In this document: positions 52,788-53,923 of the stretch, one piece after another
How positions within the stretch are numbered: the first letter of the stretch is position 1
How the letters are laid out: each line of letters starts with the position of its first letter
NCBI GenBank assembly: GCA_024691875.1
Contig: JAILNG010000014.1
Location: 1-64,000, forward strand
DNA: 64,000 nt
Source of the DNA: Lachnospiraceae bacterium
Lineage (GTDB): Bacteria; Bacillota; Clostridia; Lachnospirales; Lachnospiraceae
Reading direction: 5' to 3'
The notes under the pieces: model-generated
The model's input: only the letters and a program-made list of their open reading frames with translations
What the model was told of the DNA's origin: nothing
Database searches by the model: none
Program-made: the position numbers and the translations under genes

Positions 52788-53318
52788 CTAATATCCTTCG
52801 GGCTCGATCAATCCGTAAGTGTCACCTTTACGCTTGTAAACCACATTAATTTCATTGGTTTCCGCATTTCTGAAAACGAAGAAATTGTGATTTAAGAGTT
52901 CCATCTGTACACAAGCCTCTTCAACATCCATGGGCTTAATGTCAAATCTTTTGGTCCTTACTATCTTGATCTCGTCATCCGCTGAGTCGTCTTCTTCGGT
53001 AAAAGCAGCTGCGAAATTGGCTGCGCTTTGTTTCTTATCAATTAGCTTTTTTCTGTACCTCCTGAGTTGTCTTTCGATGATGTCTTCAATCATGTCGATG
53101 GAAGCGTACATGTCTTCGCTTTCTTCTTCGGCGTGGATCGTGGTACCTTTAAGAGGAATTGTAACTTCGACCTTCTGCTTGCCGCCTTGGACGCTGAAGG
53201 TTACATGGACTTCGGTCTCGGGTTTGAAATAGTGTTCAAGCTTGCCCAGCTTTTCCTCCACCATGTTCTTCATGCCTTTGGTTACTTCAATGTTTTTGCC
53301 ATACGTGTAAATGCGCAT
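52788..53318 (-). CDS. hpf: Ribosome hibernation-promoting factor, long form
   Basis: [31 protein letters not shown]; C-terminal domain [37 protein letters not shown]-like. Confidence 0.95.
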   Translation of the reverse strand: [176 protein letters not shown]

Positions 53319-53589
53319 ACAATCACTCCCTTTATTTAGTTGATTGGCTGAAACCTGTGAGGTTTTAACCTGGTTTTATGATAGCATATGCCCTCTTTTT
53401 TTTCAACTGTTGCAAGCCAAGTTTACAGAAATTTTATTGAGAGTATTTGGAATTTTCTGAAAAAATATGTGTCAAGAAGAAATACTAATAAATGCTCCTG
53501 ATTTGAACTTTTCGTTAATATTTACAAGGAAAATTTTGTATTATTTTGGTGTAGAATTATTCCACTTTGATAGTATAATCGGTGGAAAA

Positions 53590-53598
53590 TGTGGATAA
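53590..53598 (-). promoter_or_regulatory. DnaA-box-like 9-mer
   Basis: TGTGGATAA on + (TTATCCACA on -), exact match to the consensus DnaA box. Confidence 0.6.
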
Positions 53599-53643
53599 CT
53601 TTGCGAATAACTCACTTTTAAGGCTAAAAACAGCCGATTTTCC

Positions 53644-53652
53644 TGTGGATAA
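53644..53652 (-). promoter_or_regulatory. DnaA-box-like 9-mer
   Basis: TGTGGATAA on + (TTATCCACA on -), 54 bp from the first copy, same orientation. Confidence 0.6.
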
Positions 53653-53653
53653 C

Positions 53654-53675
53654 TTTTGCGCAAATTTGCGCAAAA
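53654..53675. repeat. Perfect 22-bp palindrome
   Basis: TTTTGCGCAAA/TTTGCGCAAAA, two bases after the second DnaA-box-like 9-mer. Confidence 0.9.
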
Positions 53676-53826
53676 AATCCATTCTACATGCTAAGAAGAA
53701 GCTTTTTTGTGAAAAATGCACAAAGGTTTTAAAAGTCAAGATGAAAATTTCAAATTTAAAAATTTCGAAAACAGACCAATATTGTCGGAGAGATAGCCAA
53801 TTCACAATATGTTAAATTTTATCTTA

Positions 53827-53855
53827 TTGATAAGGGTGGCGCAAAATGTTATAAT
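53827..53855 (+). promoter_or_regulatory. Sigma-A-type promoter for secA
   Basis: TTGATA (53827-53832), 17-bp spacer, TATAAT (53850-53855). Confidence 0.75.
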
Positions 53856-53923
53856 AAAGGATACTTTTGGGGTATTGTACCTTATTGGGGACAAAAGCCT
53901 ACCATTTATCGGAGGAACATAAA

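What the first reader, a model, noticed from the sequence alone, without database searches (positions are those of the whole stretch)
53319..53923. 600-bp AT-rich hpf-secA gap with two DnaA-box-like 9-mers and a perfect 22-bp palindrome
Seen: TGTGGATAACTTTGCG (53590-53605) and TGTGGATAACTTTTGCG (53644-53660) are near-identical direct repeats, each containing an exact TTATCCACA complement; the second runs into TTTTGCGCAAATTTGCGCAAAA (53654-53675). Flanks are very AT-rich, and a clear secA promoter lies about 150 bp downstream. Known: TTATCCACA is the consensus DnaA box; clusters outside oriC can titrate DnaA or tune transcription. Inference: a non-oriC DnaA site or a replication-linked control element for hpf/secA; the palindrome may bind a separate protein.
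Basis: partly seen in the sequence, partly recalled or inferred. Interest (0 to 1): 0.6.

Follow-up and report, generated by a model that had tools for sequence, protein, structure and literature searches.

The report
Conserved DnaA-binding locus upstream of hpf
The spacer between two ordinary genes holds one copy of a roughly 200-base control element, made of evenly spaced binding sites for the DNA-replication starter protein DnaA plus two further motifs, which recurs once per genome across a large family of gut bacteria and keeps its layout even where its neighbouring genes change, so it looks like a chromosomal site that handles DnaA rather than a switch for the neighbouring gene.

Summary
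In detail: two exact DnaA boxes and a perfect 22-bp palindrome lie in a 605-bp hpf-secA gap. They are part of something larger. The window carries four same-strand DnaA boxes at offsets 0, +9, +21 and +63. Across 127 Lachnospiraceae genera the DNA upstream of hpf shows 286 boxes against 12.5 expected, with stereotyped spacings (9, 53/54, 62/63, 97 bp). A strict 3-box pattern occurs in 111 of 299 genera, exactly once in 107, reversed control zero; 63 of 82 mapped copies lie upstream of hpf, all pointing away from it. On the hpf side two motifs recur at fixed distances (TTTTG at about 50 bp, TTGAC at about 105 bp). Copies away from hpf keep both motifs (17 of 17), some between convergent genes. 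So the element is autonomous, not hpf- or secA-specific. The canonical oriC is at dnaA-dnaN, and the window shows no GC-skew flip. Best reading: a clostridial non-oriC DnaA-handling locus, working like B. subtilis DnaA-box clusters or E. coli datA/DARS, with unidentified partner proteins. DnaA binding and effects on initiation are inferred, not shown. The palindrome belongs only to this genus.

The parts
53470..53475 (-). TTGACA motif (TGTCAA on +), 105 bp from box a on the hpf side
   Evidence: TTGAC at 103-108 or 95-97 bp in 40/58 hpf-located elements and 17/17 elsewhere; control GTCAA 1 and 1
53509..53529 (-). Degenerate copy of the TTTTGT(n)ATAAA block (CCTTGTAAATATTAACGAAAA on -)
   Evidence: Conserved in five genus members; TTTTG at 49-54 bp in 41/58 hpf-located and 17/17 other elements
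53581..53589 (+). DnaA box a, GGTGGAAAA (complement TTTTCCACC)
   Evidence: Abuts box b; tandem 9-bp arrangement in 59/127 genera, 0 expected
53590..53598 (+). DnaA box b, TGTGGATAA (complement TTATCCACA)
   Evidence: Exact; invariant in the genus except TGTGGAAAA in G004
53602..53610 (+). DnaA box c, degenerate TGCGAATAA; family consensus nGTGnATAA at +21
   Evidence: Position and family consensus; GTG is mutated to GCG here, so the strict pattern misses this genome
53644..53652 (+). DnaA box d, TGTGGATAA, +63 from box a
   Evidence: Exact; +61 to +63 in most genera with the array
53654..53675 (.). Perfect 22-bp palindrome TTTTGCGCAAATTTGCGCAAAA
   Evidence: Confirmed; partly kept in 5 genus members, not seen at box d in the other genera printed
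53550..53688 (.). Genus-level inverted repeat TGTAGAAT (53550-53557) / ATTCTACA (53681-53688) around the boxes
   Evidence: Both arms invariant in G000-G003 and G006
52788..53318 (-). hpf, ribosome hibernation promoting factor
53827..53855 (+). Predicted secA promoter TTGATA-17-TATAAT
   Evidence: 11/12 consensus match

Best explanation
The gap contains a single-copy, autonomous chromosomal DnaA-binding element of about 180-200 bp. DnaA binds a head-to-tail array of boxes (two abutting, a third 12 bp on, a fourth about five helical turns away) while unidentified proteins bind the TTTTGT block and the TTGAC motif at fixed, helically phased distances, forming one defined nucleoprotein complex. 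Its likely job is to set the amount or nucleotide state of DnaA available to oriC, as DnaA-box clusters do in B. subtilis and datA/DARS do in E. coli, not to regulate the adjacent gene. Shown: the anatomy, its conservation, single copy, and independence from neighbouring genes. Inferred: DnaA binding, the partner proteins, and the effect on initiation.
For: Array upstream of hpf in 59/127 genera; 286 boxes against 12.5 expected; spacing peaks 9, 53/54, 62/63, 97; 231 boxes point away from hpf against 55 toward it. The third box was not required in the search yet matches TTATNCAC in nearly all 58 arrays, and TTATNCACA is the published DnaA consensus (PMC4447404). Strict 3-box pattern: 111/299 genera, single copy in 107, reversed control 0; at order level 27/295, one each. 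Fixed-distance TTTTG and TTGAC: 41/58 and 40/58 at hpf, 17/17 and 17/17 elsewhere; no shuffled 5-mer exceeds 7; motif-to-motif spacing 53-55 bp, or 42-44 bp (one turn less). The array stays with hpf, or with an NlpC/P60 gene after hpf is lost, including convergent contexts mecA(+)-element-NlpC/P60(-) and V-ATPase D(+)-element-NlpC/P60(-). In complete genomes the element lies at 0.10, 0.10 and 0.28 of a replichore from dnaA.
Against: No binding or replication data. 63 of 82 mapped copies adjoin hpf in one orientation, and arrays next to hpf in other families lack the accessory motifs, so an hpf-linked role could be ancestral. Most of the 299 genera have no strict 3-box match. Origin proximity rests on few, partly related genomes, and in 48 drafts dnaA never shares a contig with the element. 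The window's own copy is degenerate in box c and in the TTTTGT block.
Confidence: 0.6

Rival explanations
1. A DnaA-controlled transcription site for hpf: DnaA bound upstream activates or represses the hpf promoter, coupling ribosome hibernation to replication.
For: 63 of 82 mapped copies are 196-532 bp upstream of hpf, all in one orientation; the hpf association reaches other families at 35-46% Hpf identity; TTGAC could be a distant -35 element.
Against: The element survives without hpf with both accessory motifs intact (17/17), some copies between convergent genes; no consistent -10 follows TTGAC; distance to the hpf start varies widely.
Confidence: 0.25
2. A DnaA- or Spo0A-related site for chromosome organisation or segregation, with DnaA as one architectural component.
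For: Fixed helical phasing of several motifs; a Spo0A-box-like TTTTGTCGAAAAA at about 78 bp in mecA-type copies.
Against: Spo0A-like motif seen in only part of the elements; no segregation protein motif recognised.
Confidence: 0.08
3. A small RNA or structured 5' leader rather than a protein-binding site.
For: The minus strand of 53545-53720 folds better than shuffles, z -4.3; flanking inverted repeat.
Against: No Rfam match above threshold; the middle varies in sequence without an obvious kept hairpin; across genera the conserved bases are DnaA boxes and short motifs.
Confidence: 0.04
4. A secondary or ancestral replication origin.
For: AT-rich DNA with clustered DnaA boxes.
Against: Uniform positive GC skew across most of the window with no flip at the gap; dnaA-dnaN region with boxes and a DnaA-trio-like TACTAATACTAAAA elsewhere.
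Confidence: 0.02

Closest known systems
B. subtilis non-oriC DnaA-box clusters (Okumura et al. 2012, as cited in PMC5295017 and PMC13220808)
   Same: Clusters of TTATNCACA boxes outside oriC, thought to bind free DnaA; deletion of six gives early initiation
   Different: There six clusters; here one stereotyped composite element per genome with fixed-distance accessory motifs, conserved across many genera
E. coli datA
   Same: Single non-coding locus with several DnaA boxes plus a required partner-protein site whose spacing matters (PMC4585315)
   Different: datA needs IHF; motifs here differ and no partner is known; ATP hydrolysis stimulation untested
E. coli DARS1/DARS2
   Same: Non-coding DnaA-box loci with accessory protein sites
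   Different: Box layout not shown to match; ADP-to-ATP reactivation untested
DnaA-regulated promoters such as B. subtilis sda
   Same: DnaA boxes upstream of a gene
   Different: Here the element persists away from the gene and between convergent genes

Membership tests
Non-oriC DnaA-box cluster (B. subtilis DBC type) | Several DnaA boxes clustered outside oriC | tested here: met
Non-oriC DnaA-box cluster (B. subtilis DBC type) | Bound by DnaA in cells | not testable with these tools
   Needs ChIP-seq
Non-oriC DnaA-box cluster (B. subtilis DBC type) | Loss gives early initiation | not testable with these tools
   Needs deletion strain
datA | Non-coding, gene-independent, single-copy DnaA-box locus | tested here: met
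datA | IHF site between the DnaA boxes | not tested
   IHF site not searched; PMC13220808 states that B. subtilis lacks IHF
datA | Close to oriC | tested here: inconclusive
   0.10, 0.10, 0.28 of a replichore in three complete genomes; 48 drafts uninformative
datA / DARS | Changes DnaA nucleotide state | not testable with these tools
   Needs biochemistry
oriC | GC-skew flip at the site | tested here: not met
oriC | Adjacent to dnaA/dnaN | tested here: not met
   dnaA is on contig C93, the window on C56
DnaA-regulated hpf promoter | Always positioned at the regulated gene | tested here: not met
   19 of 82 mapped copies are not at hpf

The most novel reading that the evidence does not exclude
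A clostridial counterpart of datA/DARS: one composite locus per chromosome at which DnaA and a new DNA-binding partner (sites TTTTGT and TTGAC) assemble to switch or titrate DnaA, in a phylum branch where no such locus is known.
Probability: 0.4. Interest if true: 0.85.

Novelty: new variant of a known kind. Interest (0 to 1): 0.72.

Why it matters
A 2026 review states that datA and DARS are absent from B. subtilis and that it is unknown whether B. subtilis has regulators that balance DnaA-ATP and DnaA-ADP (PMC13220808). A single-copy element kept across a large gut-bacterial family, with partner motifs at fixed spacing, gives a concrete place to test this and a handle for finding the partner protein. 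No paper on it was found in the held library; subscription papers are mostly missing there.

Tried and rejected
oriC: rejected by GC skew and by the dnaA-dnaN region. Rfam RNA: nothing above threshold. Plasmid match to the gap: none. Phage origin: 17 viral contigs carry the 3-box word, several inside ORFs, none with both accessory motifs at the element's distances and none with hpf. TTGAC as an hpf -35: no consistent -10. Early belief that divergent hpf/secA is peculiar to this genus: wrong, it occurs in other genera too. The first family pattern required K where this genome has C and so missed the window's own copy.

Full report
OBSERVATION. The window comes from a 239-contig Lachnospiraceae-type draft (G000, 2.34 Mb). 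Exact TTATCCACA alone is weak evidence: 28 copies in the genome against 12 for the reversed word, mostly in ORFs. The arrangement is what matters: boxes on one strand at 53581, 53590, 53602 and 53644.

WITHIN THE GENUS. Six of seven genus members keep the array in the hpf-secA gap (G005 does not). The middle of the element diverges in sequence but not in length among five of them, and TGTGGATAA changes to TGTGGAAAA in relatives, a form also used in the dnaA-dnaN boxes. The palindrome and the TGTAGAAT/ATTCTACA inverted repeat are genus features.

ACROSS THE FAMILY. A pattern scan of 84,980 genomes first showed the three-box arrangement at other intergenic places in Clostridia. I then read the DNA upstream of hpf in 127 genera. 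It holds 286 boxes against 12.5 expected; 59 genera have two boxes exactly 9 bp apart, none expected; spacings peak at 9, 53/54, 62/63 and 97; boxes point away from hpf. With a looser test, 71 of 127 have two boxes at array spacing on the away strand, 3 on the other strand, 0 in shuffles. A strict three-box pattern is single-copy in 107 of the 111 genera that have it, reversed control zero. Of 82 copies with known hpf position, 63 are 196-532 bp upstream (median 282), all pointing away; 19 are elsewhere.

A COMPOSITE ELEMENT. On the hpf side, TTTTG lies at 49-54 bp in 41/58 elements and TTGAC at 103-108 bp (32) or 95-97 bp (8). In 17 elements away from hpf both motifs are present at the same distances in all 17. 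Their mutual spacing is 53-55 bp, or 42-44 bp, a difference of one helical turn; no 5-mer in shuffled sequence recurs at one position more than 7 times. One of the 17 (L333) and five two-box copies came from complete-genome or order-level searches, so the 17 are a convenience sample. Tandem boxes at the dnaD/dnaI-like locus lack both motifs.

INDEPENDENCE FROM NEIGHBOURS. A common order is secA(-)-hpf(-)-element-NlpC/P60(-). Derived forms include hpf(-)-element-secA(+), as in the window, mecA(+)-element-NlpC/P60(-) and V-ATPase D(+)-element-NlpC/P60(-). In the last two the flanking genes converge on the element, so it cannot be their promoter region. This is the main argument against hpf regulation as the primary role. 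Against that, arrays beside hpf in other families of the order lack the accessory motifs, so the hpf association may be older than the composite form.

POSITION ON THE CHROMOSOME. In three complete genomes the strict element lies at 0.28 (G076), 0.10 (G295) and 0.10 (G132) of a replichore from dnaA, taking contigs as circular. Two-box copies with both accessory motifs in G325 and G065 are 64 and 39 kb from dnaA. In G132 and G221 hpf is far from dnaA and has no array, while the element lies elsewhere. In 48 drafts with dnaA found, dnaA and element never share a contig. Origin proximity is therefore suggestive only.

MECHANISM. Most likely DnaA and partner proteins build one defined complex here that titrates DnaA or changes its nucleotide state. 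Shown: anatomy, single copy, conservation, gene independence. Inferred: DnaA binding (from consensus TTATNCACA, PMC4447404), partners, effect on initiation. The closest known systems are B. subtilis DnaA-box clusters and E. coli datA/DARS (PMC5295017, PMC4585315, PMC13220808); membership of datA or DARS is not claimed.

Noticed in passing
L004 1396-1513 (own genome contig C36): Two pairs of abutting DnaA boxes between a DnaB_2-domain replication protein gene (PF07261) and murC; in most of the complete genomes tandem boxes lie about 2 kb from a partial DnaA-profile AAA+ hit (helicase-loader-like), a second recurrent non-oriC DnaA site.
   Followed up: partly
window 53451-53465: CodY-box-like AATTTTCTGAAAA upstream of hpf, paired with CAGAAATTTT at about 53427, conserved in five genus members; CodY presence not tested.
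   Followed up: no
window 53706-53724: Imperfect palindrome TTTGTGAAAAATGCACAAA, perfect in relative G004 (TTTGTGCAATTTGCACAAA), resembling the GCGCAA palindrome 50 bp away.
   Followed up: no
L265, L284, L288: Spo0A-box-like TTTTGTCGAAAAA at about 78 bp from the array in mecA-type copies.
   Followed up: no
L339, L340, L343, L345, L347, L352: Viral contigs with TGTGGAAAATGTGGATAACTTTGTGGATAA just before a ribosome-binding site and ATG, a recurrent phage arrangement without the accessory motifs.
   Followed up: partly
L113, L119, L123, L231, L251, L283: between array and TTTTGT: TTTACATAA and GAACnnnYGTTTTGT (LexA-box-like) recur beside the array; meaning unknown.
   Followed up: no
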